From positions 1 to 64,000 of the forward strand of contig ONGE01000003.1 of NCBI GenBank assembly GCA_900317325.1: a DNA stretch of 64,000 bases. The letters run 5' to 3'. The position numbers were made by a program, and so were the translations under genes. The notes under the pieces were generated by a model, which ran no database searches, had not been told where the DNA came from, and saw only the letters and a list, made by a program, of their open reading frames with translations. This DNA is from an uncultured Prevotellaceae bacterium. Its GTDB lineage: Bacteria; Bacteroidota; Bacteroidia; Bacteroidales; Muribaculaceae. This document shows positions 19,941 to 35,220 of the stretch, piece after piece; position 1 is the stretch's first letter, and each line of letters opens with the position of its first letter.

Positions 19941-20570
19941 ATGATTAAAGCAGAAGTGAATCTGGTGGGTACCGTCAAACGCGGTGCCACCATGCGTGAA
20001 GACAAAAACAAAAAGTCCTATCTGTCGTTTGTCATGGCAGTGAATATTACAGATGGCAATGGAAACAGTAAAGACATGGAAATCCATGTCATGTACTACA
20101 ATGCTAAGAAAAGTGATTTGCCTCTCTATGTCGAAAATCGCAGGATTGTTGCCCAGGGCATACTCGACATTCACAAAAAAGGCGAGGACTATATTTTCTA
20201 TCTGTCAGCAAGGAAACTCTCAGTCAAAGATGTGTCAGATGAAGACGCCATCGTTGGCGAGTTGCAGTTCCGAGGCCGTTTAAAAAACGATGACATCATG
20301 GAGGAGAAGATTGACAAGAACGGCAATCCGTACATTGTCTTCTCGGCATTCTCCTCAGAGAAAGTGGGTGATAAGTTCGTCAGCACATGGGTGCGTTTCA
20401 TGCGTTTCCCTGCCAAAGGGGCTGGTGTTGAAACAATCAAGCCCGACTGGATGAGACCTAAGGCACATCTCACCGCGACAGGCGACTTGCAGGTATATGT
20501 ATATAACAACGTGTTCCGCTTCACCTGCATTGTGAAGGGTATGGAAGAGTATGTCAAGGAAAACAACTAA
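19941..20570 (+). CDS. SSB-like protein with two OB-type segments
   Basis: 209 residues. Two successive segments have the order of a single-strand-binding OB fold: residues 1-95 (MIKAEVNLVGTVKRGATMRE... SFVMAVNI... VAQGILDIH) and 100-205 (GELQFRGRLKNDDIMEE ... ARPKAHLTATGDLQVYVY-like strands). The first strand pattern is that of bacterial SSB. There is no acidic C-terminal tail of the SSB type. In transfer elements such proteins coat the single strand after entry. It lies between the hydrolase and the ArdC gene, in the same run. Confidence 0.65.
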   Translation: MIKAEVNLVGTVKRGATMREDKNKKSYLSFVMAVNITDGNGNSKDMEIHVMYYNAKKSDLPLYVENRRIVAQGILDIHKKGEDYIFYLSARKLSVKDVSDEDAIVGELQFRGRLKNDDIMEEKIDKNGNPYIVFSAFSSEKVGDKFVSTWVRFMRFPAKGAGVETIKPDWMRPKAHLTATGDLQVYVYNNVFRFTCIVKGMEEYVKENN

Positions 20571-20585
20571 TAGCAGGTTTCATCT

Positions 20586-21851
20586 ATGGCAAAGAAAAAC
20601 TATACCCCGAATCCTGATGGCCGCTCAGCTGAGGACAGAGCCTTGGATAAGTTTGCCGAGCTGATGATTGAGAAAATCACCAATCTGCAAAGCGACTGGA
20701 AGAAGCCGTGGTTCTCTCCTCAGGCTGCTCAATTACCCAGAAATCTAAACGGAAGACAGTATAACGGCATGAACAGTATCATTCTCATGCTTCAGCAGGA
20801 GAAGAATGGCTGGAAGACTGCACGTTATGCCACATTCGACCGTATCACGGGACTGAACTATGGTCAAGATAAGCAAGGTAATCGCCAACCCCTCACCGAT
20901 GAGAATGGCGAGAAGCTGCCTATGGTAACAATCAACAAAGGTGAGAAAAGCACCCCTGTAATGCTAACGACATTCACTGTTGTCAATGCAGAGACCAAAG
21001 AGAAGATCAAGTATGATGATTACCGCCAGATGAGTGATGAGGAACGTGCGAAATACCATGTCTATCCAAAACTACAGGTATTTAACGTGTTCAATCTGGA
21101 CCAAACCAATCTGAATGAAGCACGGCCCGAGATGTATGAAAAGTTTCTTATTGAATCGTCAGGAGAGTCGCAGAGATCAGACAAGGATATGGAAAGCTTT
21201 CCTCCCATTGATACGATGATTGATAAAGACCTGTGGGTGTGTCCCATCAAGCCGGTTCATGGAGACAATGCCTATTACAGTCCAAGTAAGGATGTCATTG
21301 TCGTGCCAGAGAAACAACAGTTCATCGATGGCGAATCTTTTTACAGCAACCTGCTCCATGAGATGAGCCACAGCACGGGATCAGAGAGCCGTCTGAACCG
21401 CCTGAAGCCTGGGCAGAGCTTCGGCAGTTCTGAATATGCCCGTGAGGAACTGGTGGCCGAACTGACGGCGGCCTTAGTATCGTCTCAGTATGGCATGACT
21501 AAACATGTGAAGTCCGACAGTGCTGCCTATCTGAAGGGCTGGCTCTCCAAGCTTCAGGAAGATCCTTCGTTCATCAAGACCACTCTCATGGATGTGAAGC
21601 GTTCCGCTTCGTTTATCGGCCAAAGAGTCGATGCAGTGAAAATGCGTCTGGATCGTGATGGCGTAGATGCTGACTTCGCTGACATTCGTGAACAAAACAA
21701 GCAATACGCCCCGACATTCGGCAATACTAAAGCAGAGGAAACGGCACAGGTTCACCAGGAGGAGAAAACCCAACAATCAGAGGAAAGGCCAAAGGAAGAA
21801 CAGGACTTGACTGCGGCACGCGGCGTTGATCCTCCCCGATTTCACCGTTAG
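20586..21851 (+). CDS. ArdC-family antirestriction protein with intact zincin motif
   Basis: 421 residues. The N-terminal DUF1738/ArdC ssDNA-binding domain (about 1-170: FAELMIEKITNLQSDWKKPW, NGRQYNGMNSIILM) is followed by a zincin-like peptidase domain with HEMSH (about residue 259) and YAREELVAELTAALVSS, all key residues present. ArdC proteins bind single-stranded DNA and protect the entering element from restriction. Its companion at 16156 has lost this active site. The Glu-rich tail overlaps the next gene by 26 bp in another frame. Confidence 0.82.
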   Translation: MAKKNYTPNPDGRSAEDRALDKFAELMIEKITNLQSDWKKPWFSPQAAQLPRNLNGRQYNGMNSIILMLQQEKNGWKTARYATFDRITGLNYGQDKQGNRQPLTDENGEKLPMVTINKGEKSTPVMLTTFTVVNAETKEKIKYDDYRQMSDEERAKYHVYPKLQVFNVFNLDQTNLNEARPEMYEKFLIESSGESQRSDKDMESFPPIDTMIDKDLWVCPIKPVHGDNAYYSPSKDVIVVPEKQQFIDGESFYSNLLHEMSHSTGSESRLNRLKPGQSFGSSEYAREELVAELTAALVSSQYGMTKHVKSDSAAYLKGWLSKLQEDPSFIKTTLMDVKRSASFIGQRVDAVKMRLDRDGVDADFADIREQNKQYAPTFGNTKAEETAQVHQEEKTQQSEERPKEEQDLTAARGVDPPRFHR

Positions 21852-22806
21852 TGTCAATCCTTCGGATCAGCTGGGTGTCCTGTTCATGTTCAATACCGAA
21901 CATGCTGAAATGTATATGGGGTATCGTCCTATCTCAGTTGATATGGATACAGCTCTGTATATGCTTCAACAGAGGGAATCCATGCCGTATGGTCTGTCAT
22001 GGGGTAGCAGCTTTCCGGCTGTGGTGAACCACACCAGTTCGCATGTGGCAAGAAAGCACCCGGACTTTGAGGCAGCCAAGCATGGCGACTTCGATGCGGC
22101 TATCCGACTGGTCGATGACCTCGTGAAGGATGACAAGGTATTGGAGGTCGCCGAGCAATATCCAGATGCACATGTGGCTTACATCCATAGGCGGCAAGGT
22201 AATGGCATTAACATGATACCTGCTGCCTATGCTGCCAAGTTCGCAGCATTGGGAATGACGGTGGATGACGACATCATAGCTGTTACTGATGTCAAGCATA
22301 CCAACGCTTCTGACATCGCGCGTCTGGGTCGCAGGATGCGTTACGAGGGCGAAGTAGAGAAAGGAAAGGATTACATACTTCTGGATGACTTCATCACCTC
22401 TGGTGCGGAACTCAGGGATCTGCGCGACTATATCTCCAGCAAGGGAGGCAATGTTGTGATGATAACCACCTTGGGTCATGGCAGTTTCGGAAAACTGAAA
22501 GACATCAGAATAGACAATGATTACAAAAGCAAACTTCAACAAGCCGGTATCACCGATCAAGATTTAAGAAGATATGGCATCGCATCAGAAATCGGATGTC
22601 TCACCATCAGTGAGGCTGCCAAATTCAACAGAATGGTTAACAAGAAGCGAGAAAGACCTACTTCGACAGTCTTCGAAAGATTTTCAAGCTTACGTCAGGA
22701 ACAGTCCTCAGTTCCACCGATGGCAAAAGAACTTCCAGAGAATGAAGGAAGGACACAAGTAAGTCTGCCACTTCCTGTTACTCAGCACCCCTCTATGAGA
22801 AGGTAA
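21826..22806 (+). CDS. Phosphoribosyltransferase-like protein
   Basis: 326 residues from a TTG at 21826 inside the end of the ArdC gene; the frame is closed at 21808, so the only other option is ATG 21889. The central DYILLDDFITSGAELRDLRD segment is a PRPP-binding signature of type I phosphoribosyltransferases (hhhDDhhTSG). The N-terminus (FNTEHAEMYMGYRPISVD) and an Arg/Lys-rich C-terminus are not typical of nucleotide salvage enzymes. PRTase-like proteins occur beside ArdC genes in Bacteroidales elements; the substrate is unknown. It ends the long co-directional run; the cargo island starts after it. Confidence 0.65.
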   Translation: MILPDFTVSVNPSDQLGVLFMFNTEHAEMYMGYRPISVDMDTALYMLQQRESMPYGLSWGSSFPAVVNHTSSHVARKHPDFEAAKHGDFDAAIRLVDDLVKDDKVLEVAEQYPDAHVAYIHRRQGNGINMIPAAYAAKFAALGMTVDDDIIAVTDVKHTNASDIARLGRRMRYEGEVEKGKDYILLDDFITSGAELRDLRDYISSKGGNVVMITTLGHGSFGKLKDIRIDNDYKSKLQQAGITDQDLRRYGIASEIGCLTISEAAKFNRMVNKKRERPTSTVFERFSSLRQEQSSVPPMAKELPENEGRTQVSLPLPVTQHPSMRR

Positions 22807-22892
22807 TCATGCGTCGTTATGGATATGTCATAAACAGTATACTGATTTCAAGTAGTCAAAAAAATGACTACAACTTATTTTTGCTGATGCAA

Positions 22893-24179
22893 TTAAAATG
22901 GAAGATCTTCTTCATTCATATTATCTTCTACTGAATTTTGTTTCTTTAATCTAAATATGTTACTATATTTGACCCTGCCATATTGGCTCTTATTTTCTGG
23001 TGATGTGGGCATCGGTTCAAATGACTCTGTTGTATGAATCCCAATAGAATCTTCTGTATTAATAGTTACTAGACTCCTATATTGGTTGGAGTGGATATAT
23101 GACCTTATGCCATATGTTGAGCCATTGTGTAATATTATAGATCCATCTTTTTTATATAAAACAATACGATCATAATATCGCAGAACGCAACCATTAGGTA
23201 TAACGACAGAAGACATGATTTTTTTGCATCCTTTAACTTCCTTGATTATTCGTTTATAAGCCCCCTCCGTTCTTTGTTTGAAATCTGTTACAAAGAATGA
23301 TCCGTCTTTCAATTTTATAAATGCTGATGAACTGCTATTGAAGCAATAGCTAAGATCGTCATTTTTTACGTCAAGTTCATCAAGTAGTGGATCCATTTTA
23401 TCGACCTGAATTGCAAAATTTACAATTTGCTTGTATTCTCCCCCTTTTCTTAGAGTATAGTAATTTGGTATATTTTTATTTGTTCGTTGAGATTCATTAT
23501 GAATATACTGAAACTTACTTTCTGCATCATAATTTAATAAATCAATGTCTTTCCAATCAGTCCGCAATGAAGATCCGCCCACCTTGGGTCTTTCATCAAT
23601 TTTTACGTGTAATTCAGGATCACTAATATTCGATGAAAAAAGCCCCTCCCTATCTGCCGAAATTGCAATAGTTCCATACCTGGCATTTACCGAAACCACC
23701 TTTGAGTCAAAAACTTTGTCTATATTACCAGGGGTAACTTTTGCTTTTTCATCTTGGATAATTATGCTCTCATAAAGACCATCTTCACAACCCATGTATA
23801 GCCGCATTGCGTAAAGGCGTACATCTAATGGCATTGATTTCCATTCACCTATATCATGGAAATAGCGACTTATACTTTCGAAAGAAATTGTAAAACAAAC
23901 TTCTTTTCTGGCTTTTTCCCATTCTTTAATAATCTGCGACTGTACACCATTAATCCCTAAAAAAAGACGACCAGGAGCAGTATTTGTATAATCATTGTGC
24001 AGAAAAGCTAATTGAAATAAATTCTTAAAATGTGGATAATTGTCTTGTAATAATCTGACTAAATAGGTGAAAGAAATATATGCAATACGACCGTTCTCAA
24101 AAAAGACATACAAATTACCAGCATATAGATATGAATCTATCGCATTGATATTCCCAATTGTGAAATTTAATGTTTTCAT
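22893..24179 (-). CDS. Uncharacterised cargo protein with propeller-like repeats (428 aa)
   Basis: 428 residues, AT-rich codon use unlike the backbone. The middle has segments ending in short Gly-Leu turns: CEDGLYESIIIQDE, NARYGTIAISADREGLFSSN, then further strands such as GCVLRYYDRIVLYKKDGSII and RSLVTINTEDSIGIHTTES. This resembles a beta-propeller or a repeated beta-sheet protein, so a binding or sensing role is possible. No catalytic motif. It overlaps the stop of the 138-residue gene by 4 bp (ATGA) and is the last gene of a three-gene minus-strand operon. Family unknown to me. Confidence 0.6.
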   Translation of the reverse strand: MKTLNFTIGNINAIDSYLYAGNLYVFFENGRIAYISFTYLVRLLQDNYPHFKNLFQLAFLHNDYTNTAPGRLFLGINGVQSQIIKEWEKARKEVCFTISFESISRYFHDIGEWKSMPLDVRLYAMRLYMGCEDGLYESIIIQDEKAKVTPGNIDKVFDSKVVSVNARYGTIAISADREGLFSSNISDPELHVKIDERPKVGGSSLRTDWKDIDLLNYDAESKFQYIHNESQRTNKNIPNYYTLRKGGEYKQIVNFAIQVDKMDPLLDELDVKNDDLSYCFNSSSSAFIKLKDGSFFVTDFKQRTEGAYKRIIKEVKGCKKIMSSVVIPNGCVLRYYDRIVLYKKDGSIILHNGSTYGIRSYIHSNQYRSLVTINTEDSIGIHTTESFEPMPTSPENKSQYGRVKYSNIFRLKKQNSVEDNMNEEDLPF

Positions 24180-24592
24180 ATTTCTCTTTTTAGCAGATTA
24201 CGATAATTACGTGTTGAAATGAATGCAGACTCTTTCCAGCGTTTTATAACCTCGTCACTAATATCTTTTGATGATACAGGATATCCATGCCATGGGTTGT
24301 TTCCAGGTTCAGGGAAATAAGCTATTCGCTCTTCATTATCCAATCCAAGAACTTCATCCATATTATCTAAGAAACTATACAAACCTCCGTCGCCTTCATA
24401 ATGTTCTTTATCTTCATCAGCCACTCGGAAAACTTCATACTGCTCAGGTGGCTTTATGCGCCATCGACTTTTATTCGCTCTCTTTTTTGCTGTGGGATTG
24501 TGGTAGCTAGCAGGAAGATAGAAATGCCCTTTATTAGTGGGACCATAAGTCTTATCTGCATTCCTTGCAATATGTGGATAGTTATATGCCAT
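24176..24592 (-). CDS. Uncharacterised cargo protein (138 aa) with PWHGYPV motif
   Basis: 138 residues, basic N-terminus (HNPTAKKRANKSRWRIKPPE) and an acidic middle. A distinctive stretch, EPGNNPWHGYPVSSKDISDE, precedes a short helical end with WKESAFISTRNYRNLLK. The start is 2 bp after the upstream AlbA_2/ATPase gene and its stop overlaps the 428-residue gene, so the three are translated together. The small size and coupling suggest a partner of one of the two larger proteins, for example a toxin inhibitor or adaptor. Function unknown. Confidence 0.6.
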   Translation of the reverse strand: MAYNYPHIARNADKTYGPTNKGHFYLPASYHNPTAKKRANKSRWRIKPPEQYEVFRVADEDKEHYEGDGGLYSFLDNMDEVLGLDNEERIAYFPEPGNNPWHGYPVSSKDISDEVIKRWKESAFISTRNYRNLLKREI

Positions 24593-24594
24593 TG

Positions 24595-26838
24595 TTATGC
24601 CTTTTTGTGATCAAAAATATGTGATACTTCTCTGATTTTTATCAAATCACTTTCTATCCGTTCCATTCTGTCCACGACAAGTTTGACATAGTGGAAATCA
24701 TTTTCATCAGGATAATAGAACTTAATATCACGCATCACCGCCAATCCAAGACCATCACCTTCATCTCTCATGTTAAAGATATTTGAATACAACAAATGCC
24801 GCTCATTAATTAGTTTATATTCAATATTGGGACCTTCATAAATTTTGGTCTCGCATCTAGGAAGCTTTTCTTTTAGCATCACAATCAGGTGAGATTCATG
24901 CGAAGGGACCTGATATATTGGTATATCTCCATACTGATAACCAAATTCAGTCTCTTCTATTGCGATATCACCTCCATATAGTTTATCATACGTGCCTAAA
25001 TTGAAACTTGTAATTATAGCAAATCTTCCATCTATGCCTAAAGACTTAAACGCATCTTTGATTTCAGAGAAACGAATCTTGTAACTTGCTTCTGAATGAT
25101 GCATTAGGAATTGAACATTGTAGTGCTGCCATATGTTTCCTTGTATCTCATGCAAATATAGTTCTGGTGTTTCGTAGATCCAGATGCCGTTGTCCTTGAA
25201 CATTTCTTTCTTCATCTTGTATGCGGCTGGAAAGCAACGAACATCTATAACAGGAAGTGTGGATTTATACTGTTCTTCTATATGTGGTAAGCTAATTGGA
25301 AAATGAGGTAATGCTTCTTCAAATTCGGCAATCAGCCGGTTCACTCTTTCTTCGGACACACCACCCATTGTTTGATTACCTTCCGTTTCATTTTTAAGCA
25401 TTTCTCTCCCTAAATCAGTCAAATAATACTTTTGAGTAGGGCTTTTGGGTGAATTGGGATGAGTCATAGCTAATAATCCTTCTGCAATGAGGGGGTCTAT
25501 GAATTTGGCCTTAAAATAGGACGAATCTTTTTGTCCGCAAAAATGCCTCATATCTTTTGCCGACATTGGGGTAACCATTTTTCGAAGCAACTCAATTGTC
25601 ATGGGAACGCTTAATGACAACTTGACGATTACTTGATGACTACTTAATGACTGCTTAGTGACAACTTGCCCTTCCTCAGTTTTATTTAGGCTTATATCAT
25701 ACCCCATTGAATATATGATGGTCATAAATTGGCTTGCAGTAGATTTGAATACTGGTTTCAACTCTTCTCTGTACCCATCTAATGCCTTAGTCTCATTACA
25801 GATCCGCTTCAATCCACTACCTCTTTTTTCCATATAATCCAATTGAGCCATTACATCAGCTAGAATTGGATTTCTTCTTTCTGATGATATCTCTTCAAGA
25901 GCCAAGTCTTGAATCTTTTGACCACTATACATCCCACCTGGAGAAGTAATCGCCAATCTATCATCATAGATATCCAAATGAACTTCACCGCCCATTACCG
26001 TATAGTCACGATGAATGAAGTGATTCACGAGGGCCTCAAGTACTGCTCTTTCAGCGTATTCAGGCTTATTCTTTCTGCCATGAGGTAGTTTCTCCCATCC
26101 TTTACGAGTATTTACCTTTACGAAGTCCATTGCTTCACGAAGCAACAATAGGATATTACCTTTAAATTCAGAATCGTTGATAGCATCACTCTTCTCTAAA
26201 CCATTCCATCGTGTGCAGTATAATCTAGATTGGCTTAAGTTACAGTCATCGGAGAACAAAGCACCAGCATTAGTGAGATCACCTGTATTAGTGACAAGTC
26301 CAAAAGACAAGAGATACTTCTTGTCCCATTTTTGATTTGTTCGGGTTTTAAACGTATTGGCCAGTATAGTGAAAGAATAATCGTCCACTTTATAATCCGT
26401 ATTTAGGGAGTCAAAAGTTTTGTTTGAACCTTTCAGAACCAAACGAACCATTTGCTCTGAAGTTGCAGGTATGCTCTCATCACCATTACGGACATATGCC
26501 ACTCTTTGGCCGTCTCCAACATAATAATAAGGAGTGTAACGACCTGATATCACTTTTAATTGCAATACTTGTAAACCATCCATTAAATGCGGAATCATTT
26601 CAACCTCAGGAAGGGGATCCATATAATCACGGATTTTAATGCTGATGGTTTCACAAACATGTTGCACATCGTCAACGCCTCTTACAATGCCATCATTGTC
26701 AATACCAAAGAAAAGAGAACCACCATACCCATTGGCAAAAGCGCTTACACTCTTCAGCCAGCTTTTAGGTCTGTTTTCTTCAAGCATCAACTTGAAATCG
26801 AATGCAGTACATTCTGTAATCAGAGTTTCTAATTTCAT
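24595..26838 (-). CDS. Schlafen AlbA_2 / HATPase-like protein with extra C-terminal domain
   Basis: I start it at ATG 26838 (MKLETLITECTAFDFKLMLE), where the family begins; the open frame runs on to 27048, but that stretch is not domain-like. 747 residues. Domains in order: AlbA_2 DNA-binding domain (about 1-125, SAFANGYGGSLFFGIDNDGI), a HATPase_c_4 type ATP-binding region (about 290-410, AVLEALVNHFIHRDYTVMGG and ITSPGGMYSG), a winged helix (about 450-540, YYLTDLGREML) and an unassigned C-terminal region of about 200 residues (IIDVRCFPAAYKMKKEMF onward). Many AlbA_2 proteins are regulators; the long extra C-terminus is unusual. First gene of the cargo operon. Confidence 0.75.
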   Translation of the reverse strand: MKLETLITECTAFDFKLMLEENRPKSWLKSVSAFANGYGGSLFFGIDNDGIVRGVDDVQHVCETISIKIRDYMDPLPEVEMIPHLMDGLQVLQLKVISGRYTPYYYVGDGQRVAYVRNGDESIPATSEQMVRLVLKGSNKTFDSLNTDYKVDDYSFTILANTFKTRTNQKWDKKYLLSFGLVTNTGDLTNAGALFSDDCNLSQSRLYCTRWNGLEKSDAINDSEFKGNILLLLREAMDFVKVNTRKGWEKLPHGRKNKPEYAERAVLEALVNHFIHRDYTVMGGEVHLDIYDDRLAITSPGGMYSGQKIQDLALEEISSERRNPILADVMAQLDYMEKRGSGLKRICNETKALDGYREELKPVFKSTASQFMTIIYSMGYDISLNKTEEGQVVTKQSLSSHQVIVKLSLSVPMTIELLRKMVTPMSAKDMRHFCGQKDSSYFKAKFIDPLIAEGLLAMTHPNSPKSPTQKYYLTDLGREMLKNETEGNQTMGGVSEERVNRLIAEFEEALPHFPISLPHIEEQYKSTLPVIDVRCFPAAYKMKKEMFKDNGIWIYETPELYLHEIQGNIWQHYNVQFLMHHSEASYKIRFSEIKDAFKSLGIDGRFAIITSFNLGTYDKLYGGDIAIEETEFGYQYGDIPIYQVPSHESHLIVMLKEKLPRCETKIYEGPNIEYKLINERHLLYSNIFNMRDEGDGLGLAVMRDIKFYYPDENDFHYVKLVVDRMERIESDLIKIREVSHIFDHKKA

Positions 26839-27005
26839 TTTAACGGTAACTATATTACAAAAGAATTTTAGTCTTTTCGCTTGTAAAGTTACTACTTTTT
26901 CTAGAAATGGAAACATAAAACCATAGTTTCGTGCTCTTTTTAAGCAAATTTTGTCTAAACAAGACTGTGGCATTACAATAATAAACGCTTTATGCAAAAA
27001 ATGAT

Positions 27006-27013
27006 TACCTTTG
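27006..27013 (+). promoter_or_regulatory. -7 promoter box, plus strand, in cargo divergent region
   Basis: TACCTTTG fits TAnnTTTG and lies 28 bp before the ATG of the short remnant frame at 27042. It is the clearest promoter in the region between the divergent cargo genes and may drive the 1243-residue gene. Confidence 0.4.
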
Positions 27014-27041
27014 TACTTGTAAATCATAAAAACTAGATGAT

Positions 27042-27128
27042 ATGGCACAGCATTCGATTAAGCTGTTCAATTTCTACAATGAGAGACTTGATCTGAAGTT
27101 ATTAACAGGAGTATCGCATGAAATTTGA
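27042..27128 (+). pseudogene. Short N-terminal gene remnant upstream of the 1243-aa gene
   Basis: ATG 27042 starts a protein-like frame (MAQHSIKLFNFYNERLDLKL, 28 residues) ending at TGA 27126. Further protein-like words appear downstream in another phase (KSLYEQYYSNVISR before a stop near 27257), so 27042-27300 looks like a gene lost by deletions. Nothing else in the 307-bp gap is recognisable. Confidence 0.35.
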
Positions 27129-27355
27129 CGGGCGGTGCACTATGGATCGTAGCGAGATGTAGGTATAGTTGTAGTGATCAGGTAAACAGGAAAGACTCTC
27201 TGCTTTTGTTCCGAAAAGTCTGTATGAGCAGTATTATTCGAATGTTATTAGTCGCTGAGAGATAAGAACCATAAGGGGCTGAAGGCAGTCTAGATTCTAT
27301 TATATAACGAATGGAGAATTAATAAAATAAGAAGAAATTAAACGAGAGATTTGAC

Positions 27356-30300
27356 ATGAATATAGTTATATCTTCTATCATCAGAGGGACTATCGGTTAT
27401 TTCGTTAAAAGAGGATGGGACAAAATCCTTACTGAAGACGAATATTGTGAGGAGTTGAACCACATTATTTCGGCAACTATTGAGGAGTTTGCCGACATAC
27501 GCCCTGTGGAGAGTACGCATGATACCTTTCCGTTTTATCAGTCGCAAATTATTATTAATGAGCTTGTGAAGTTGGGTGTTGAAGAAAGTGACGAAGATAC
27601 AGTAAGAAATATTGAAGAGGAATTAGAAAAGAACGAGCATATCATTAAGCCCAAGCCAGGCGATTTGAGACTGTTTCTTGACTTGTTCTATGCAAACTGT
27701 ACTAAGAATGAGAAGATTAAACAGCTCCATATAGAGAAATTCTACAAAGAGGAAGTATTCATCATTTCTCAAAAGATTGATAGGCTTCAGAATTCGGTCG
27801 ATCAGATAGCAATCCTCCTAAGAGAAAGTCTGAAAACAGAGTGGAAAAGACAATTTGATGTTTATAAAAAGGAATTAACAAAGTATAAGCCAAAGACGGC
27901 ATTGGAACTATTGGAAAAACTTGATGAAACCATTAGGGAGTCAGGAAACGAGTTTCCAAATAGTATTATGGCAAAGCTACATCAAATGAAGGCGCTTTGT
28001 TATGAAATGATGAGGGACAAGAAATATGATAATGAGTATCATATGTGTTACGTTATGGACAATAAGAATGTCCAGTATATGGAGCACGAAACGATATGGT
28101 TATTATACAAGAAAAAGAAAGATGAAGCGATAGCGTTAGCCAAGAGCATCAAGGAGAGGGATGAGGATAACCCAACGGCATTATTCGTTTTAAGCTTTGA
28201 TGAGAATCGGGAGAATTTCGGACAGAACCTAAACGCCCTTCCCCAATATGTGAAAAAGAGTGCACGCTTACTCTCCTTGGTATACCAATACATTGTCAAT
28301 AGACAAGTAATAACCGCTACAGATCCATTGATTTGTTTTTTAATTGACAATTATGAGCGGCAAGAGGACGTTTGTGATGACTTTGCACACTTCATGGAAA
28401 ACCACCGACGGATGGAATATGTACAATTCGTCTATATCATAACAACACATCAGTATTTCTTTGATAAACGAATGACATCCACTCCTCAGATGGAAGAGAT
28501 TTATAGTTTGTCGTCAGTGTTGGCAAAGCAGATGAGAGGCACAGAAATAGAAGCGCTATTTCCTGAGGTTTATTTCTTTGAAGGATTATCGGGATATATT
28601 GTAAAAGATATAAAGGAAGGGTTAATTAATGCTATAGGTTGTATTGACTCTAAGAAAACAAACTATCTTCTATTGCATGCTGTATGCCTGCAATATGAGG
28701 ACTACAATGAAGAGGCAATCAAGATAGTAGACACAATGAATGAAGCAAAAGACCAGGCTCATTTCCTGAAGATGCACATCTACAACAAAACCCAAAACAA
28801 GGAGAAAGCTCTCGAGGAATACGCACTATACCTCAAATCTCTGGTAATAATTGATAAACTGAATTTTCCAAGAGTGTTCAATGGCGTTATCAATAAGATG
28901 CTCAATCCAACAGATACTGATATGATAGATATGGAGAATCTGATGACGAAACAATTTGAGTATGAACAACATCGGAAATTGATGGTGGATCTAAAAAAAT
29001 GTATTGACGAACCCAATGAGAGTAATTATAGGGTTCTGTGCGAAGATGCAAACAAAGAGGAGGTGGATTTTAAATCTGCTATAGCGTTTGTTACACTGAT
29101 GGGGGGCTATCATCAGTTGGCTCTGCCCATCTATGAGGAGATAGTTATGCACGGGGTATATGATGAACGCATGTTCTATTACCTGCAAGCTTTGCATCTG
29201 GGAAAAACACATAATGAGTTGTTGCTGGCTTTGCTTAAAAATTGGCGTCTGTACGCAGACCATCAAGAAATAAAGCTGCTCGAAATAGAATTACAGCTAA
29301 GAATGAGATTAAGAGAATGGGAGGAGGCATTAGATGTAATCAGAATTCTGTATGGAATGAAACCCCTCGCGGAGAATTTGTATGCTGCATATCTAGTCAT
29401 TCTGGTAAATAACGGGAAATTTATGGAGGTGGGACAGCTTAAAGACCTCGCACCATCTATCATGTTTACAACAGACAATTATATTTTGGAGACTGCTTCA
29501 GCCCTAAATGAGGCAGGTTATTTAGAAGATGCGATGAATTTTCTATTGCCATATGCCAAGAGTTCGGATCGTCCGAGACTGCGTATGTTTTATCTCACCT
29601 TGTGTCATTCTTCCAAAGATGGCAGCACCGCTCTGAAACAATATGACGAAATTATTGAAGGTTCATACGTGTTTTACACCCTAAATGGTGAAGAACAAAA
29701 GACTCCTTTATTTATAAAACCACACAGTAGTATGCCTTCGATAAAAGTACTGTTAGGCCATAAGAAAGGAGATGTTGTATCAATAGATAGAGGTTTGGGG
29801 ACAATGTCGGACAAGGTTGAGGTGAAAATGATAGCCAACGACCACTATGCCCTTATGAAGGAGATATATGGCGAGATGGAGAATCCCATTACATCGCAAT
29901 TGCCTGGCAAGATGTTCAAACTACCAGATGATACAGATATAGAAAGCCTTAATGACTTCTTTATTAAGAATTTTGCAAGTCAAGAAGAGCATAGAAGGCA
30001 GGTCTATAAAGATTGTTTAGCTCAATACGACCGAGGTGATATGCCTTATGGCATGGTTCCAATACTACTCTATGAAGGCGATTTTATCAGAGGGTATTAT
30101 ATTCTTTGTGGTGAAGAGCATGGTATCTTGCTTAATCCACAATGTAGAGAAGAACAATTTAACTATGCACAAGAAATTGAGTATGTGCTTGATTATAGTA
30201 GTTTGATGCTGTTTTTTGAACTGAGCAGGACTGAGGGGTTTGAGTTTAAGCAAAGGTTTGTGGTATCGAAAGTCGTGGAGGAGATAGCACAACAAGAACT

Positions 30301-31087
30301 TGAAAAATTGGAGAAATTACCAGATGACTCCCTGTCGCTTGATATTTCAATTAAGGGTGTCACACCCATTATTCACACAAAAGAAAGCAAACAGTGGCAG
30401 GTTGATCTTATACGGGACTTGCTAGATTGGATTCGCAACAACTGTAAGATAGAGACGGCTGAGGGAAGACTTGATGTGCTAATGGAGCATGAAATAAGGT
30501 TTGAAGTACAAGGAGGATACAGCCTAGATTATGTGGCTGATTATATAAAACTAGTAGACAAGAACAGAATATTGGTTTCAGATGACAAGCTGCTACAGCA
30601 GATGTATCTTCCCATGAAACAGGGAATTAGTAGTTATACCTATCTGAAGAATGTTTTTGACGATAATACTATTTGCAGAAATATGCTCAAGATGCATTAT
30701 ATTGGAGTACCTATAAATGCAGAACTCACATATAAAGAGTTTTTGAAAAAGCAAGAAGGATGCGAGAATGTGTACAATCAGGCTTTAAAAGGCTGGAGCT
30801 ATTTGGTGTCAGTGAATAGAGCGTTTATTATCTCTGAACTAGTTAGACTAGTGAAGAAAATATATCTAACTCCAATTATTGTGACTGATTTGCATATGGA
30901 GGTTGAAAATGTTTTTGTGACCGTTTTAATGAGTGTATGCGATATCAATGTATTTTTCTTTCTCCAGAAAGAGTTGAATGCAGAATTCAAACTGTTGGGA
31001 CAAAAATTGCCACAAGTGTTGCATGATTTATTGATGGCACTAGATAAGATCTCAATTGGAAGAAGCAATGTGGTAATAGGACCGTAA
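27356..31087 (+). CDS. Giant TPR - GreA/B-C-like - PIN protein (1243 aa)
   Basis: 1243 residues. N-terminus (1-60) unassigned, with a short hydrophobic start. About residues 150-780 is an array of TPR-type helix pairs (TALELLEKLDETIRESGNEF, EDYNEEAIKIVDTMNEAKDQ, REWEEALDVIRILYGMKPLA). About 785-835 reads like the GreA/GreB C-terminal domain: PSIKVLLGHKKGDVVSIDRG and IANDHYALMKEI. About 940-1095 reads like a PIN nuclease with four acidic positions in order: Asp in LDYSSLMLFF, Glu in SKVVEEIAQQ, Asp in GYSLDYVADY and Asp in ILVSDDKLL. PIN domains cut RNA; TPR arrays bind partners. Adjacent to a degraded CHAT-like gene and divergent to the AlbA_2 operon. A defence effector is the most likely role; domain calls are from memory of motifs. 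Confidence 0.62.
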   Translation: MNIVISSIIRGTIGYFVKRGWDKILTEDEYCEELNHIISATIEEFADIRPVESTHDTFPFYQSQIIINELVKLGVEESDEDTVRNIEEELEKNEHIIKPKPGDLRLFLDLFYANCTKNEKIKQLHIEKFYKEEVFIISQKIDRLQNSVDQIAILLRESLKTEWKRQFDVYKKELTKYKPKTALELLEKLDETIRESGNEFPNSIMAKLHQMKALCYEMMRDKKYDNEYHMCYVMDNKNVQYMEHETIWLLYKKKKDEAIALAKSIKERDEDNPTALFVLSFDENRENFGQNLNALPQYVKKSARLLSLVYQYIVNRQVITATDPLICFLIDNYERQEDVCDDFAHFMENHRRMEYVQFVYIITTHQYFFDKRMTSTPQMEEIYSLSSVLAKQMRGTEIEALFPEVYFFEGLSGYIVKDIKEGLINAIGCIDSKKTNYLLLHAVCLQYEDYNEEAIKIVDTMNEAKDQAHFLKMHIYNKTQNKEKALEEYALYLKSLVIIDKLNFPRVFNGVINKMLNPTDTDMIDMENLMTKQFEYEQHRKLMVDLKKCIDEPNESNYRVLCEDANKEEVDFKSAIAFVTLMGGYHQLALPIYEEIVMHGVYDERMFYYLQALHLGKTHNELLLALLKNWRLYADHQEIKLLEIELQLRMRLREWEEALDVIRILYGMKPLAENLYAAYLVILVNNGKFMEVGQLKDLAPSIMFTTDNYILETASALNEAGYLEDAMNFLLPYAKSSDRPRLRMFYLTLCHSSKDGSTALKQYDEIIEGSYVFYTLNGEEQKTPLFIKPHSSMPSIKVLLGHKKGDVVSIDRGLGTMSDKVEVKMIANDHYALMKEIYGEMENPITSQLPGKMFKLPDDTDIESLNDFFIKNFASQEEHRRQVYKDCLAQYDRGDMPYGMVPILLYEGDFIRGYYILCGEEHGILLNPQCREEQFNYAQEIEYVLDYSSLMLFFELSRTEGFEFKQRFVVSKVVEEIAQQELEKLEKLPDDSLSLDISIKGVTPIIHTKESKQWQVDLIRDLLDWIRNNCKIETAEGRLDVLMEHEIRFEVQGGYSLDYVADYIKLVDKNRILVSDDKLLQQMYLPMKQGISSYTYLKNVFDDNTICRNMLKMHYIGVPINAELTYKEFLKKQEGCENVYNQALKGWSYLVSVNRAFIISELVRLVKKIYLTPIIVTDLHMEVENVFVTVLMSVCDINVFFFLQKELNAEFKLLGQKLPQVLHDLLMALDKISIGRSNVVIGP

Positions 31088-31205
31088 AACTATGGGAATT
31101 ACGGCATATTATAAAAGAAACAACATGGTCTCCTGTGAAAAGAGAGAGGCACAGAAGGCCTAAACGAGCTTAGTATAAATCATTCTATGAAGCGATGAGT
31201 CCTGA

Positions 31206-31493
31206 TCAAGGATTGCGGTAATCGAATCATTTTTAGAAGAAATACATGCTGGAGAAAAACTATACGAAGTAGAACTGGCTCCCTTATTTCTTAGCGATAA
31301 TTTGATTACGACCTCATTTCATACAGTAAAAGAAAATTCATTCAAAAGTTCAAATCAAGAAATCTTCAATGGCGTAAGTGGCGATGACCTTGTTATACTT
31401 CATATAGAAGCTCATGGTTCGGAAGAGAAAGGATTATTCTTTTCATCTAGAATTATTCTTGAATGGATTAACTCAATTGTTGTAGTTTTTTAA
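31206..31493 (+). pseudogene. CHAT/caspase-like protease remnant
   Basis: A frame open from 31206 to the TAA at 31493 contains IAVIESFLEEIHAGEKLYEV and then DDLVILHIEAHGSEEKGLFFSS. The HIEAHG segment matches the His-Gly motif of CHAT-type peptidases, followed by the expected I-x-W-I-N words (ILEWINS). The start, the Cys-bearing part and the end are missing, and the upstream TGA at 31203 and the lack of a start show it is not functional. CHAT proteases act in several bacterial conflict systems. Confidence 0.4.
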
Positions 31494-31761
31494 ATGAGGT
31501 GTTAAATGGGCTTATAGTTGTGACTATATCGAAGTGAAATACACTGTTGAGACTGGGTAACATTGATTTGACAAATAGGGTTCCATACAGAGTTTTTTGT
31601 TGACAAACAAGAATGTAATTGTAAATGAAGTAGAAGGTGCACACAATGATGACCCGATGTGTCCTCATTTTTTCCTGAAGCAGGAAAAGGCAATGCTCCC
31701 TCAGCAACTCGTAGTTACTAAAGGAGCGGCTGCCAGCTATGATGACTCGATAATCGTCCAT
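31468..31761 (-). pseudogene. Truncated cpYpsA/DUF2493-type SLOG protein
   Basis: The first 40 residues (MDDYRVIIAGSRSFSNYELL, then LLQEKMRTHRVIIV) match SLOG/DUF2493 proteins of Bacteroidales elements. These normally continue with a SGxARGADxLG nucleotide-binding motif; here the sequence changes after VIIV (about 31642) to unrelated CTFYFIYNYILVCQ. So the gene was cut at that point, which marks the right boundary of the cargo island. It begins 9 bp after the OmpA gene stop and was the third gene of the mobV-ompA operon. Confidence 0.65.
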
Positions 31762-31770
31762 TTAATTGAC

Positions 31771-33111
31771 CTATTGCTCGTCGTCAATTTCCAGATAGAG
31801 TGACACTCTACTGTATCTGTTGTCTTTCGGGTTGCTAAATTCCTGTATGCCCCCAAGTGAAACGCCTTTCATCTTATCTGTTGGCACACCACGTTTTGAC
31901 AGTTCTTTTGCAATGAACCTGGCGCGCTCCTTGCTTAATTCAGAATTGACATTCTCAGAACCCGTTGCACTGTCGGCTGCACCCGCAATATGTACTCTAA
32001 GATTATGCTCGATGGCCACCTTTGCCAGTTCGTCCAGGTTAATCAATTGGGAATTATCTGTCAACTTAGCTTTACCCAGCTCAAAGAAGAAGTATATGGG
32101 TATGTTCAAAACATTCGGTCTGTCCTGTAATGAGTAAGGCGGGGCGTATTCATTCATGCCCTTCATGCGAGAACGCAGTGAAAGCAGTCCTCTGTAATTG
32201 TTCTTGGCATTACCATCGTCGCTGTTATCAAAAAGATAGCCATACTTGCCCAATAGTCCTTCAATCTCCAAAATCTTTTTCAGTTCATCCAAAGTCTTTC
32301 GGTCGATATTGCGTTGGTCACGAAGATGTTTGTTGGATTGTTCCAGCCGTTCTACGTAAGCAAGCAGATTGTCGTTCTGATTGATGAAAGGATTTGCATC
32401 AACGGCATGATTCCATCGTGGCGTTCCAAAGTTGAATCCGATGCCGAACGTCAAAGACGGCATGTTGTCGCATAGCTTTCCATGTGAACCATAGCCGTCG
32501 AAATCTCGGAATGTAGTGAAGTTCCCCAATTCCCCAGACAGGTAGAAACGTTCCCCGAAATGGCATCGTGTATGGATGCCATAGGTAAGGGCAAACAAAT
32601 AGTTCCGATCCTTGCTACCGTCCTCACAGAACTGGTCAGCGCCATGAACGAGTCCTGCACCTATAAAAGGAGCAAAGTCAAACTTGGGCAAGCGTTCCGA
32701 TGGCTGTCGGAACAAGTTGGCGACGTTATACATCAGGTCAGCATGTCCCAACTGGTAGTCAGCCATGTCAAGGTTACTGTTCTTATACTTAAACCCCTGA
32801 AAAGCTAACCGCACACCAAAAGCTGGTGTAATCCATTTGCCTACATAGGCATTGAATGAAGGCATGATGCGATCGAACAGGTCGCCACATCCTACCGGGT
32901 TCCCAATGAATGCTGATGCACCACCTTGGGCACCAACAAACCAGTGCTGACTTGCTATGCCCAGCTGCACATAGTCAGTTGTCAATGTCGGAGTTAGACG
33001 ATGTAAATCCCGGTTGTCAACTGTAACCCGTTGAAGGCTGTCAATCATACTTGCGTGGACGCTTGTCGCCATTGACAAGGCTAAAAGTGAAATCAGAATA
33101 CTTTTCTTCAT
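31771..33111 (-). CDS. OmpA-family outer-membrane protein
   Basis: 446 residues, signal peptide MKKSILISLLALSMATSVHA. An N-terminal beta-barrel-like region (about 40-235, with YVQLGIASQHWFVGAQGGAS and FGIGFNFG) is followed by a helical linker (RLEQSNKHLRDQRNIDRKTL) and an OmpA C-terminal domain (about 340-440, IPIYFFFELGKAKLTDNSQ and LSKERARFIAKELSKRGVP) that binds peptidoglycan. Such OmpA proteins occur in Bacteroidales transfer elements and may help mating contact. It lies between mobV (62 bp upstream) and the truncated SLOG gene. Confidence 0.83.
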   Translation of the reverse strand: MKKSILISLLALSMATSVHASMIDSLQRVTVDNRDLHRLTPTLTTDYVQLGIASQHWFVGAQGGASAFIGNPVGCGDLFDRIMPSFNAYVGKWITPAFGVRLAFQGFKYKNSNLDMADYQLGHADLMYNVANLFRQPSERLPKFDFAPFIGAGLVHGADQFCEDGSKDRNYLFALTYGIHTRCHFGERFYLSGELGNFTTFRDFDGYGSHGKLCDNMPSLTFGIGFNFGTPRWNHAVDANPFINQNDNLLAYVERLEQSNKHLRDQRNIDRKTLDELKKILEIEGLLGKYGYLFDNSDDGNAKNNYRGLLSLRSRMKGMNEYAPPYSLQDRPNVLNIPIYFFFELGKAKLTDNSQLINLDELAKVAIEHNLRVHIAGAADSATGSENVNSELSKERARFIAKELSKRGVPTDKMKGVSLGGIQEFSNPKDNRYSRVSLYLEIDDEQ

Positions 33112-33173
33112 GATGTAATTGATTTAGATATTACTAATGATACTGATATTACTTGTATTACTCATATTGATGA

Positions 33174-34628
33174 TTATCTGCTTCTTTTGATTTTTCGACC
33201 CGCAGGTCTGACCATTGCGGCGGCCTGTAAGATGCACCTCATCCACCAGTGCTCATCATCGTCTTCCTTGTCTCGTCCCCATCCAGACATATTACCGCTG
33301 CCTCCGCCGCCACAGGACTCTGCATAGGTCGTGGCTTGACTGATGTAGTTGATGGCCAACAGAAGGGCGCAGTTGATGATATGTTGAGAATTGTTTCTGA
33401 GGTCAAAGAAGCCGGACTTATCTAAAATCTCATGTTGTTCCGCATTAAGGGTAGGCAAAAGAGGTTCCATCAAGGACGCCACCATCTTATAATAAGTGGC
33501 ATTGATGTTTGAGTGAACTATTTCAGCCCTTCTGTCGATGTCATCTCCGATTGATTTAGACATTTCGCCATGCGCTCGCTTCAGTTTTTCAAGTTCCGTT
33601 TTGGCATTCGATAGTTCGGATTCTGTTTCGTCCAACATCCTTTGCCTGTCCGCCATCTTCCGGTCGATATCCTCCATCTGCTTGCGGAGCTCTTCCATGC
33701 GATTGGCCAACTGTTCCTTGTCCTGTCCATCCTCACCAAGTTGCTGAGCGATAAGTTCTATTTCTTCGTTTATTTTTTCTTTTCGGGTCTGTAAATTCGC
33801 TATCATCGTGGACAGCCCCTTCAGTTTGATCTCTGCTCTACGAATCTGCCTCTGTAATCCTTCCCTGGTGCACTCCAGCTCCTGCACCTGATTGATGAGA
33901 TCACGCTTGTATTCCTCTGTCGAGCGGTGCCTTGCGCCTGTTTCAGCCTTATTGCTGCCACGTTCAAGTCCCCAGTGACTGTTGACTTCCTCGTACAGTT
34001 CATTGTGAAGTCGTGTAAAAGTTGCTTTCTCTTCCATGGGATTCTTCCCAAAAACGCTTGTCCATGAAATCCGTTGGTTCATTTCGTCAATGGGAAGGAC
34101 GGTACAGTGGCAATGAGGATTCGTTTCATCCAAATGAACGTAGAAACTGACGATGTTTTCCTCGCCGAATTTTCGGGCAACAAAGCGATAGACATCAGCC
34201 GCCCATTTCTCAATGTCCTTGGTTCTTGTTAGTTTTGAGTTATCCGCCCCTTTATTGAGATTTACGTCCTGCTCTCCGAACGCCATTTCCAACATGCGCC
34301 CTCTACTGCCGCCGAATATCATCTGGGCAAGGATCCGCTGCTTTCTGCGTGCCATAGCCCTGGCATTAGGATTCTTGATACCACGTGAGTTGAGGATGTC
34401 ATTCATCCTCTCGTCAATGCTCTTGGACTTGTCTATCGGCTGGACCTTTCCTCCTTTTGTGATCTCGAAATTCAGATGGGCACGAGTCGGGTCGTAATTG
34501 GCGAGGCTGTCTTTGGATTTTCTGTCCCAAAGGTTTTCTGACCAGTTGCGCTGCTGCTCATTGCTTTCCTGTTTTGATATGCCATCCTTGTTTGGACGCA
34601 CATCCATTACTTGTTTCTTTTCTGCCAT
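33174..34628 (-). CDS. MobV-family relaxase (plasmid recombination enzyme)
   Basis: 484 residues. The N-terminal relaxase domain has a MobV first motif (NYDPTRAHLNFEITKGG) and the metal-binding motif HLDETNPHCHCTVLP (about residues 164-178). From about 245 to 385 it is a strong coiled coil (LQRQIRRAEIKLKGL, LEKLKRAHGEMSK). MobV relaxases nick oriT and lead the strand into the recipient; the 250-bp region upstream of this gene is the natural place for oriT. It heads the mobV-ompA-SLOG operon. The C-terminus has a Gly-rich turn (SCGGGGSGNMSGWG). Confidence 0.85.
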   Translation of the reverse strand: MAEKKQVMDVRPNKDGISKQESNEQQRNWSENLWDRKSKDSLANYDPTRAHLNFEITKGGKVQPIDKSKSIDERMNDILNSRGIKNPNARAMARRKQRILAQMIFGGSRGRMLEMAFGEQDVNLNKGADNSKLTRTKDIEKWAADVYRFVARKFGEENIVSFYVHLDETNPHCHCTVLPIDEMNQRISWTSVFGKNPMEEKATFTRLHNELYEEVNSHWGLERGSNKAETGARHRSTEEYKRDLINQVQELECTREGLQRQIRRAEIKLKGLSTMIANLQTRKEKINEEIELIAQQLGEDGQDKEQLANRMEELRKQMEDIDRKMADRQRMLDETESELSNAKTELEKLKRAHGEMSKSIGDDIDRRAEIVHSNINATYYKMVASLMEPLLPTLNAEQHEILDKSGFFDLRNNSQHIINCALLLAINYISQATTYAESCGGGGSGNMSGWGRDKEDDDEHWWMRCILQAAAMVRPAGRKIKRSR

Positions 34629-34656
34629 TTTTTGTTTCTATTAATCTCTTCTGCCT

Positions 34657-34797
34657 GAGCTTGCTCCCCGTAGGAACTCTTTCAGGAGAGGCAGCCTAAC
34701 GAGTTAATGAATGTTAACTCTTATTAGGCTAAGAGTTTTTATAAAACTCCCATCCCTTTGTTCGACATCATATCTCTTTGTTCGGAGGAGCAAGCTC
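34657..34797. other. Candidate oriT: inverted repeats upstream of mobV
   Basis: The 250-bp gap between mobV and the 34879 gene carries nested inverted repeats: GAGCTTGCTCC (34657-34667) with GGAGCAAGCTC (34787-34797); GCCTAA/TTAGGC (34694-34699, 34724-34729) enclosing GAGTTAA/TTAACTC (34701-34707, 34714-34720); and GAGTTTT/AAAACTC (34733-34739, 34743-34749). TTTGTTCG occurs twice, 20 bp apart (34757, 34777). Relaxase origins usually show this kind of structure immediately upstream of the mob gene. The nick site itself is not recognised. Confidence 0.45.
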
Positions 34798-34878
34798 CCC
34801 ATTTGGGAGAGTGAAGTTCCGATCTTTGATTGTGGCTGCCTGCTCATATTCGAGAAGATTGAAGAGTATGCTATCAAT

Positions 34879-35220
34879 TCACTTGATAAATTTCTCTGCT
34901 TCGGCACTCAGCGAATAGGCAAAATATTTGCCGAAACGCTCCCGTCTAAGTAAACCCAGATCGATGAGTTCCTGAGTGAATTTCTGGACGCTTGGGCGGC
35001 TCCAATGCCATAGTTTTGCCAGTTCACTGTTTGTGACTTTGTACAGTTGTAACTGGCCTTCTTTTTGGGAAAAAGGAAATCCATCAAGTATATGCTCCGC
35101 TAACCACATGAATGCGTCAAAACGAGACAGCTTGTGATTGTCTTTCGTTTTAAGGATATCCAGGAGAGTGATGTCAAACGTCATCTTATGGATGGTTCTA
35201 TTTATCTGATTCTTTTTCAT
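34879..35220 (-). CDS. Winged-helix DNA-binding protein (113 aa)
   Basis: 113 residues with a central winged-helix pattern: KVTNSELAKLWHWSRPSVQK as the recognition helix and LGLLRRERFGKYFAYSLS as the wing. The N-terminal helix (LSRFDAFMWLAEHI) is typical of replication-initiator-like or MarR-like small proteins in Bacteroidales elements. It lies immediately upstream of the candidate oriT and mobV, and so could regulate mobilisation or act with the relaxase. No partner gene identifies it further. Confidence 0.6.
   Translation of the reverse strand: MKKNQINRTIHKMTFDITLLDILKTKDNHKLSRFDAFMWLAEHILDGFPFSQKEGQLQLYKVTNSELAKLWHWSRPSVQKFTQELIDLGLLRRERFGKYFAYSLSAEAEKFIK

What the first reader, a model, noticed from the sequence alone, without database searches (positions are those of the whole stretch)
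22893..31087. Cargo island with a possible undescribed two-arm defence system
Seen: an AT-rich island in the ICE backbone, between the PRTase gene and a SLOG gene that is cut off at about 31642. One arm is a minus-strand operon in which an AlbA_2/HATPase protein with an extra 200-residue C-terminus, a 138-residue PWHGYPV protein and a 428-residue repeat protein follow each other with 2-bp spacing and a 4-bp overlap. The other arm, divergent, is a 1243-residue TPR/GreAB-C/PIN-like protein. Known: cargo slots of ICEs often carry defence genes, and PIN and CHAT domains are common effectors. Inferred: sensor (propeller or AlbA_2/ATPase), adaptor (138 aa) and RNA-cutting effector.
Basis: partly seen in the sequence, partly recalled or inferred. 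Interest (0 to 1): 0.72.

Follow-up and report, generated by a model that had tools for sequence, protein, structure and literature searches.

The report
Two separate mobile-element cargoes, one undescribed
An apparent mobile DNA element in a bacterium carries two unrelated pieces of cargo: a large protein of an already predicted anti-invader type, and a pair of coupled genes that recurs in three bacterial phyla, sometimes beside a probable regulator, and that the protein family collections searched here do not name.

Summary
The two-arm system is not supported. The right arm (27356-31087) is a lone TPR-GreA/B-C-PIN protein, a predicted conflict protein described in 2021 (PMC8195603) as mostly standalone. 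Its PIN family is in 0 of 6 other pair-bearing genomes or plasmid records, and the left arm's large protein in 0 of 9 other genomes with a PF20698 match. The left arm holds something undescribed: a 138-aa protein (invariant H31, W44, HGYP) coupled to a ~400-aa partner. This pair lies in the same order, overlapping, at 8 loci in three phyla, without a significant Pfam or PDB match. In 3 of the 8 an AlbA_2-HATPase gene lies upstream; regulator and pair versions reassort independently, suggesting a real but exchangeable link. My reading: effector plus partner, in some lineages under an AlbA_2/HATPase regulator, probably defensive or addictive. The mechanism is inferred. Both structure models failed (pLDDT 34 and 30), no internal repeat was detected, and defence-gene neighbours were not shown to exceed background (3 of 10 control ORFs also hit).

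The parts
22893..24179 (-). Large partner of the two-gene family (428 aa; relatives 390-443 aa). Fold unknown.
   Evidence: A profile of three Bacteroidota-type rows finds the partners in L011-L014 at E 3.9e-9 to 1.3e-6. No Pfam match over cut-off; best PDB match E 1.3.
24176..24592 (-). Small 'WHGYP' protein (138 aa), coupled to the large partner by a 4-nt overlap.
   Evidence: Invariant in 8 of 8 rows: Y25 H31 W44 G83 F93 H102 G103 Y104 P105 I138. No Pfam match over cut-off; no PDB match at E up to 10.
24595..26838 (-). AlbA_2-HATPase_c_4-Fic-like_C protein, probable regulator/sensor (747 aa from ATG 26838; open frame to 27048).
   Evidence: Pfam; 80.9% aa identity over residues 1-377 with L040:10663-12135.
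24598..25416 (-). Orphan C-terminal extension of the AlbA_2 protein (about 270 aa).
   Evidence: No Pfam; no relatives; the near relative L040 has a different, HTH-type C-terminus.
27356..31087 (+). Lone TPR-GreA/B-C-PIN protein (1243 aa), a separate cargo unit.
   Evidence: PF20698 E 5.8e-8; relatives on a Hymenobacter plasmid (90% covered, 20.7% identity) and in other genomes of the window's phylum; PMC8195603 (passages).
27356..27826 (+). Unnamed N-terminal region of the giant, in the variable effector position.
   Evidence: No Pfam; matches the L031 N-terminus at 2.5e-16, L004 only at 0.024.
30185..30604 (+). PIN domain of the giant (residues 944-1083); acids D946, D1062, D1077.

Best explanation
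The island is a cargo slot holding two independent units. Unit 1 (27356-31087) is a self-contained TPR-GreA/B-C-PIN conflict protein, predicted in print to engage RNA polymerase on invader transcripts and cut RNA with its PIN domain. Unit 2 (22893-26838, minus) is a recurring three-gene unit: a conserved coupled pair (small WHGYP protein, ~400-aa partner) with an AlbA_2-HATPase protein upstream. Shown: gene order, overlap, recurrence of the pair in three phyla, absence of a named family in the libraries searched, reassortment of the AlbA_2 gene against the pair, and a dN/dS of about 0.1 for the small gene in one comparison. Inferred: the small protein is the effector, because it holds the invariant histidines and the HGYP motif; the large protein holds it inactive or delivers it and senses a trigger; the AlbA_2-HATPase protein, where present, controls the pair by nucleic-acid and ATP binding. 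The unit probably serves phage defence or maintenance of the mobile element. My estimates: two independent units 0.9; pair a genuine two-gene family 0.97; AlbA_2 functionally tied to the pair where adjacent 0.7; small protein the effector 0.45; defence role 0.5.
For: Pair at 8 loci: window; L008 (72%/68% aa identity to the window's small/large protein) and L040 (43%/30%); L006; Sphingomonas L011; Sinorhizobium L012; Agrobacterium L013; Ruminococcus L014. Overlap 4 nt in 6 loci, 13 nt in 2. Profiles from window, L008 and L006 alone recover both genes in L011-L013 and the large one in L014; profiles of the other four recover both genes in window, L008 and L006 at 7.9e-16 to 3.9e-11. Small gene dN 0.21, dS 2.10 against L008. 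DNA similarity to L008 covers 22939-24596, the pair less the last 46 nt of the large gene and 4 nt upstream, and nothing else; DNA similarity to L040 covers only the AlbA_2/HATPase part (25711-26841). So the window combines an L040-type regulator with an L008-type pair. Accessory pattern, own or centre genome included: 2 of 247 family genomes, 2 of 61 genus genomes, 1 of 49 in the genus of G151. Giant independent. PIN acids.
Against: No structure: both AlphaFold models failed. No enzymatic family is recognised. No AlbA_2 gene was found by profile in the stretches read at 5 of 8 loci. Defence-like neighbours are not clearly enriched: 5 of 10 chosen neighbours hit PADLOC and 3 of 4 (one of them the AlbA_2 gene itself), but so did 3 of 10 background ORFs of this window. 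Large partners show few invariant residues. The plasmid share (4 of 8) reflects that a plasmid collection was searched. The small-protein profile is weak: it also gave 8e-5 to two chance ORFs. dS is near saturation for the small gene and could not be computed for the large one.
Confidence: 0.45

Rival explanations
1. The pair is a toxin-antitoxin-like maintenance module: one gene poisons the cell, the other neutralises it, and its benefit is stabilising plasmids and integrated elements rather than defence.
For: Two coupled overlapping genes, 4 of 8 copies on plasmids (a plasmid collection was searched, so this share is biased), sporadic distribution, a small protein with two invariant histidines.
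Against: The ~400-aa partner is unusually large for an antitoxin (general knowledge). Copies with an added AlbA_2-HATPase gene suggest regulation beyond a simple pair. No toxin family matched.
Confidence: 0.3
2. One reading: the triplet senses, the giant cuts RNA, both divergently transcribed from one control region.
For: Divergent neighbours in one AT-rich island; the three PIN acids are present in the window protein.
Against: PF20698 in 0 of 6 other pair-bearing genomes/records; the large partner in 0 of 9 other genomes with a PF20698 match; published mostly standalone habit of the giant (PMC8195603, passages); about 518 bp lies between the divergent ATG codons.
Confidence: 0.04
3. The AlbA_2-HATPase gene is an independent hitchhiking regulator and its adjacency to the pair is incidental to crowded cargo islands.
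For: AlbA_2 relatives sit beside other things: inside a BREX operon (L036) and beside a large helicase-like ORF (L035; identified by eye). Not found at 5 of 8 pair loci.
Against: Same strand, same order, directly upstream in 3 of 8 loci with different AlbA_2 versions (28% and 81% identity to the window's), and 2 bp from the small gene here. Its genome-wide frequency was not measured.
Confidence: 0.25

Closest known systems
TPR-GreA/B-C-PIN conflict system (Kaur et al. 2021, PMC8195603; Pfam PF20698)
   Same: The giant has the PF20698 PIN domain with its acids, aligns over most of its length with other members (L031 residues 1-1215, L029 136-1212, L004 23-1135), and has no recurring partner gene among those looked for.
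   Different: Its N-terminus, shared with L031, matches no Pfam family, whereas relatives carry trypsin-like, alpha/beta-hydrolase or, weakly, Cap4-like nuclease N-termini.
AlbA_2/Schlafen-HATPase_c_4 ATP-binding proteins
   Same: Same domains, followed by a Fic-like_C domain.
   Different: An extra ~270-aa orphan C-terminus, and a place directly before the WHGYP pair that is seen in 3 of 8 pair loci.
Two-gene toxin-antitoxin modules
   Same: Small gene first, overlapping larger gene, sporadic distribution.
   Different: No family match, very large partner, optional third gene; toxicity untested.
Beta-propeller/Mrr-nuclease defence protein found by functional selection (PMC9519451, passages)
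   Same: Only the general idea of a propeller-sized part serving an effector.
   Different: There the propeller is fused to a nuclease; here no propeller fold or repeat could be shown.

Membership tests
TPR-GreA/B-C-PIN system (giant, 27356-31087) | C-terminal PIN-TPR-GreABC domain over the curated Pfam cut-off | tested here: met
   33.5 bits against cut-off 27.8
TPR-GreA/B-C-PIN system (giant, 27356-31087) | PIN active-site acids conserved | tested here: met
   All three in the window protein; across 10 aligned proteins D946 is D in 7 (E in one more), D1062 D in 8, D1077 D in 10. Naming these columns as the active site is from general knowledge of PIN domains
TPR-GreA/B-C-PIN system (giant, 27356-31087) | TPR and GreA/B-C domains before the PIN domain | tested here: inconclusive
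   Pfam reported only PF20698 in the window protein at E up to 1; aligned with L031 over residues 1-1215, L029 136-1212, L004 23-1135 at 21-23% identity
TPR-GreA/B-C-PIN system (giant, 27356-31087) | Mostly a standalone gene | tested here: met
   No pair or AlbA_2 gene in the stretches read in 9 other genomes with a PF20698 match (five of the stretches are short or end near the gene); other recurring neighbours were not searched for systematically; published habit
TPR-GreA/B-C-PIN system (giant, 27356-31087) | Variable N-terminal effector or EAD10 | tested here: inconclusive
   N-terminus has no Pfam match; EAD10 itself not tested
Toxin-antitoxin module (pair) | Two coupled genes | tested here: met
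   Overlap 4 or 13 nt at 8 of 8 loci; co-transcription itself inferred
Toxin-antitoxin module (pair) | One gene toxic, the other neutralising | not testable with these tools
   Needs an expression assay
Known defence system in PADLOC 2.0 (pair) | Match to a PADLOC model | tested here: not met
   Window copies only: large protein 0 families; small protein only NsnC at E 0.03 over 31 residues
Beta-propeller or other repeat protein (large partner) | Internal repeats or propeller model | tested here: inconclusive
   Profile self-alignment best off-diagonal P 0.11; model pLDDT 30.4
AlbA_2/HATPase family (24595-26838) | SLFN_AlbA_2 and HATPase_c_4 domains | tested here: met

The most novel reading that the evidence does not exclude
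The WHGYP small protein and its ~400-aa partner form an undescribed two-gene defence (or addiction) system present in Bacteroidota, Alphaproteobacteria and Bacillota, with a new effector fold built around two invariant histidines; in the window's lineage and its kin it is upgraded to a three-gene system by an exchangeable AlbA_2-HATPase sensor-regulator.
Probability: 0.35. Interest if true: 0.75.

Novelty: new variant of a known kind. Interest (0 to 1): 0.5.

Why it matters
A coupled gene pair kept together across three phyla without a named family, on plasmids and in an apparent mobile-element cargo slot, is the sort of unit from which new defence or toxin families have come. It also shows AlbA_2-HATPase proteins, common and poorly understood, placed upstream of the same effector-like pair in different combinations, which makes their regulatory role directly testable. 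For the giant, the result is a sharper boundary: it is a member of an already predicted, mostly single-gene system and can be studied alone.

Tried and rejected
Rejected: (1) the four-gene two-arm system. (2) Matches in L009 and L010: chance hits, lying inside a peptidase-like and a SusD-like ORF by my reading of the sequence (no family search run on them); dropped from all pair counts. (3) Weak Pfam names on the pair (Ribosomal_L50 0.1, HYLS1_C 0.077, DUF6751 0.13): below cut-offs. (4) NsnC for the small protein, E 0.03. (5) Propeller/repeat claim: not shown. (6) Defence-island argument from neighbours: PADLOC hits on single neighbours are common here (3 of 10 background ORFs), so not used as evidence. 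(7) A 0.0043 hit of the large-protein profile on the AlbA_2 ORF of L040: taken as chance.

Led nowhere: seven viral-contig scans for the small, the large, the giant and the AlbA_2 C-terminus; phage records; the empty site of the island (PRTase found only in G000 among 149); structure prediction with two-row alignments; a Bacteroidales promoter pattern (recalled consensus), no full match and matches to its shorter half near chance level; Rfam none at 20000-35000; literature searches: the system name in three forms found nothing before led to PMC8195603; the HGYP motif, propeller-type defence pairs, six protein accessions and AlbA_2 in defence gave nothing on the pair in the listings seen. 'Undescribed' rests on those searches of an open-access library and on the family libraries named.

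Limits: pair loci came from a sample (1999 genome-searches with repeats, one genome-contig scan with a single protein, plasmid tblastn); fast-evolving relatives are missed. G1053 was not searched genome-wide for PF20698; only its 19.5-kb stretch was tested with the giant profile, negative. PADLOC was run on chosen neighbours, not all; those of L014 were not run. Of the nine PF20698 stretches, five (L026, L027, L031, L033, L034) are short or end near the gene; G886 and G704 fell below the Pfam cut-off, and G812 and G886 matched only in short frames.
Full report
What is there. Four large genes fill an AT-rich stretch (G+C 0.368 against 0.475 for the window) between a PRTase-like ORF and a short SLOG-like remnant. 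On the minus strand: an AlbA_2-HATPase_c_4-Fic-like_C protein (24595-27048 as an open frame; the ATG at 26838 is the likelier start), a 138-aa protein after a 2-bp gap, and a 428-aa protein overlapping by 4 bp. Divergent: a 1243-aa protein with Pfam PF20698, the PIN domain of the TPR-GreA/B-C-PIN system, over its curated cut-off. Flanking genes include an ArdC antirestriction protein and a Mob_Pre relaxase, which fits a mobile element; the transfer genes themselves were not tested.

The giant is known in kind. PMC8195603 (passages read) describes a conflict system whose constant core is TPR, GreA/B-C and PIN, with variable N-terminal effectors, mostly as standalone genes, predicted to act on RNA polymerase hijacked by viruses. 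The window protein aligns over residues 1-1215 with L031, 136-1212 with L029 and 23-1135 with L004 on a Hymenobacter plasmid, at 21-23% identity. Its PIN acids: D946 is D in 7 of 10 aligned proteins and E in one more, D1062 is D in 8 and D1077 in 10, the window being one of the 10. Relatives carry trypsin-like, alpha/beta-hydrolase or, below the cut-off, Cap4-like N-termini; the window's first ~160 residues match no Pfam family but match one relative at 2.5e-16. PF20698 was found in 10 of 395 phylum genomes, the window's own included, 8 over the cut-off, and in 1 of 247 family genomes, the window's own.

The pair is not known in the libraries searched. Searching with the 138-aa protein and then with partners gave eight loci where both genes lie side by side in the same order: the window; L008, a goat caecum Bacteroidaceae MAG; L006 (G151, same family as the window); L040 (G1053, same genus); and plasmids of Sphingomonas aerolata (L011), Sinorhizobium americanum (L012, no feature listed over the small gene), Agrobacterium pusense (L013) and Ruminococcus albus (L014). 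The four plasmid cases reflect that a plasmid collection was searched. Overlap is 4 nt in six and 13 nt in two. The two genes test each other: a profile of the large proteins of window, L008 and L006 recovers those of the four plasmid loci at E 3.9e-9 to 1.3e-6, and a profile of the three small ones recovers those of L011-L013 at 1e-16 to 9.7e-6, missing L014 and also giving 8e-5 to the two chance ORFs that had been fetched with a related profile; the reverse profiles recover both genes of window, L008 and L006 at 7.9e-16 to 3.9e-11 with no chance hit up to 0.01. Ten residues of the small protein are invariant in 8 of 8 rows: Y25, H31, W44, G83, F93, H102, G103, Y104, P105, I138; the large one keeps M1, Y19, G169, G179 and S364. 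No row of either passes a Pfam cut-off; profiles find nothing significant in the PDB; members tested in PHROGs give nothing below 0.01, and the window copies nothing significant in PADLOC or NCBIfam. The small gene has dN 0.21 and dS 2.10 against L008, which points to purifying selection although dS is near saturation; the large gene could not be scored. Pair G+C is lower than its flanks in 7 of 7 loci measured, by as little as 0.014 in L013.

The regulator is linked but exchangeable. An AlbA_2-HATPase gene stands directly upstream on the same strand in the window, L008 and L040; a profile of these three finds none in the stretches read at the other five loci. Against L008 the window's DNA similarity is the pair (22939-24596, less the last 46 nt of the large gene), while the AlbA_2 proteins share 28%. 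Against L040 it is the AlbA_2/HATPase part (25711-26841, 74.5% DNA, 80.9% protein), while the pair shares only 43% and 30%. The window thus combines a regulator of one lineage with a pair of another, and in L040 the C-terminus after the HATPase domain is a different HTH type. Recurrence with different partners argues for function; swapping, and absence at five loci, argue that the pair is the core.

The arms do not travel together. PF20698 is absent from 6 of 6 other pair-bearing genomes or plasmid records (two genomes, four plasmid records), and the pair's large protein is absent from 9 of 9 other genomes with a PF20698 match (three of these nine, G812, G886 and G704, scored weakly or in short frames). 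Around G1053's pair no giant was found within 19.5 kb.

How it may work. Inferred, not shown: the small protein, with two invariant histidines and a strict HGYP motif, is the active part; the large protein is its keeper and trigger reader; the AlbA_2-HATPase protein, where present, sets expression. Defence is plausible (an nSTAND3-Mrr gene near L040, a Fic gene near L008, HNH and Vsr genes near L013), but PADLOC hits were 5 of 10 and 3 of 4 among chosen neighbours against 3 of 10 among background ORFs of this window, so enrichment is not shown. Structure prediction, limited to two-row alignments, failed for both proteins, and no internal repeat was detected.

Verdict. What deserves follow-up is the pair, alone and with its AlbA_2 gene.

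Noticed in passing
window 31206-31493 (+): Remnant reading '...VILHIEAHGSEEKGLFFSS...', which resembles a CHAT/caspase-like protease core by eye (recalled motif, no family search); preceded by stops, so probably a decayed gene between the giant and the SLOG remnant.
   Followed up: partly
window 31647-31761 (-): N-terminal remnant 'RVIIAGSRSF' of a SLOG-like gene (motif recalled); Pfam YAcAr only at E 0.31. The rest was not looked for elsewhere.
   Followed up: partly
L040:12547-14847 (-): nSTAND3-Mrr protein (PADLOC PDC-S73, 1.4e-134) 411 bp upstream of the AlbA_2 gene of the eighth pair locus.
   Followed up: no
L036:8989-10452 (+): AlbA_2 relative sitting inside a BREX operon between brxC and pglX of an Azotobacter plasmid.
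   Followed up: no
L035:5983-7524 (+): Closest plasmid relative of the AlbA_2 gene (Phocaeicola massiliensis, 51% over 376 residues) is interrupted by an in-frame stop and follows a 1624-aa helicase-like ORF (by eye); no pair beside it was noticed.
   Followed up: no
L011:7963-10135 (-): Protein annotated as nucleoid-associated (YejK type by recall) with an overlapping 391-aa partner next to the Sphingomonas pair; a YejK domain is listed among newly validated defence domains in PMC13092281 (passage).
   Followed up: no
L005 (Runella plasmid pRUNSL03): A TPR-GreA/B-C-PIN relative with a trypsin-like N-terminus lies near MBL-fold hydrolases and a ThiF/multiubiquitin/DUF6527 cluster.
   Followed up: no
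window 24595-27048 (-): The AlbA_2-HATPase protein matches PADLOC models named for pAgo and pAgo-associated proteins (1.2e-13 to 1e-9) over its AlbA_2-HATPase part; meaning of the shared region not examined.
   Followed up: no
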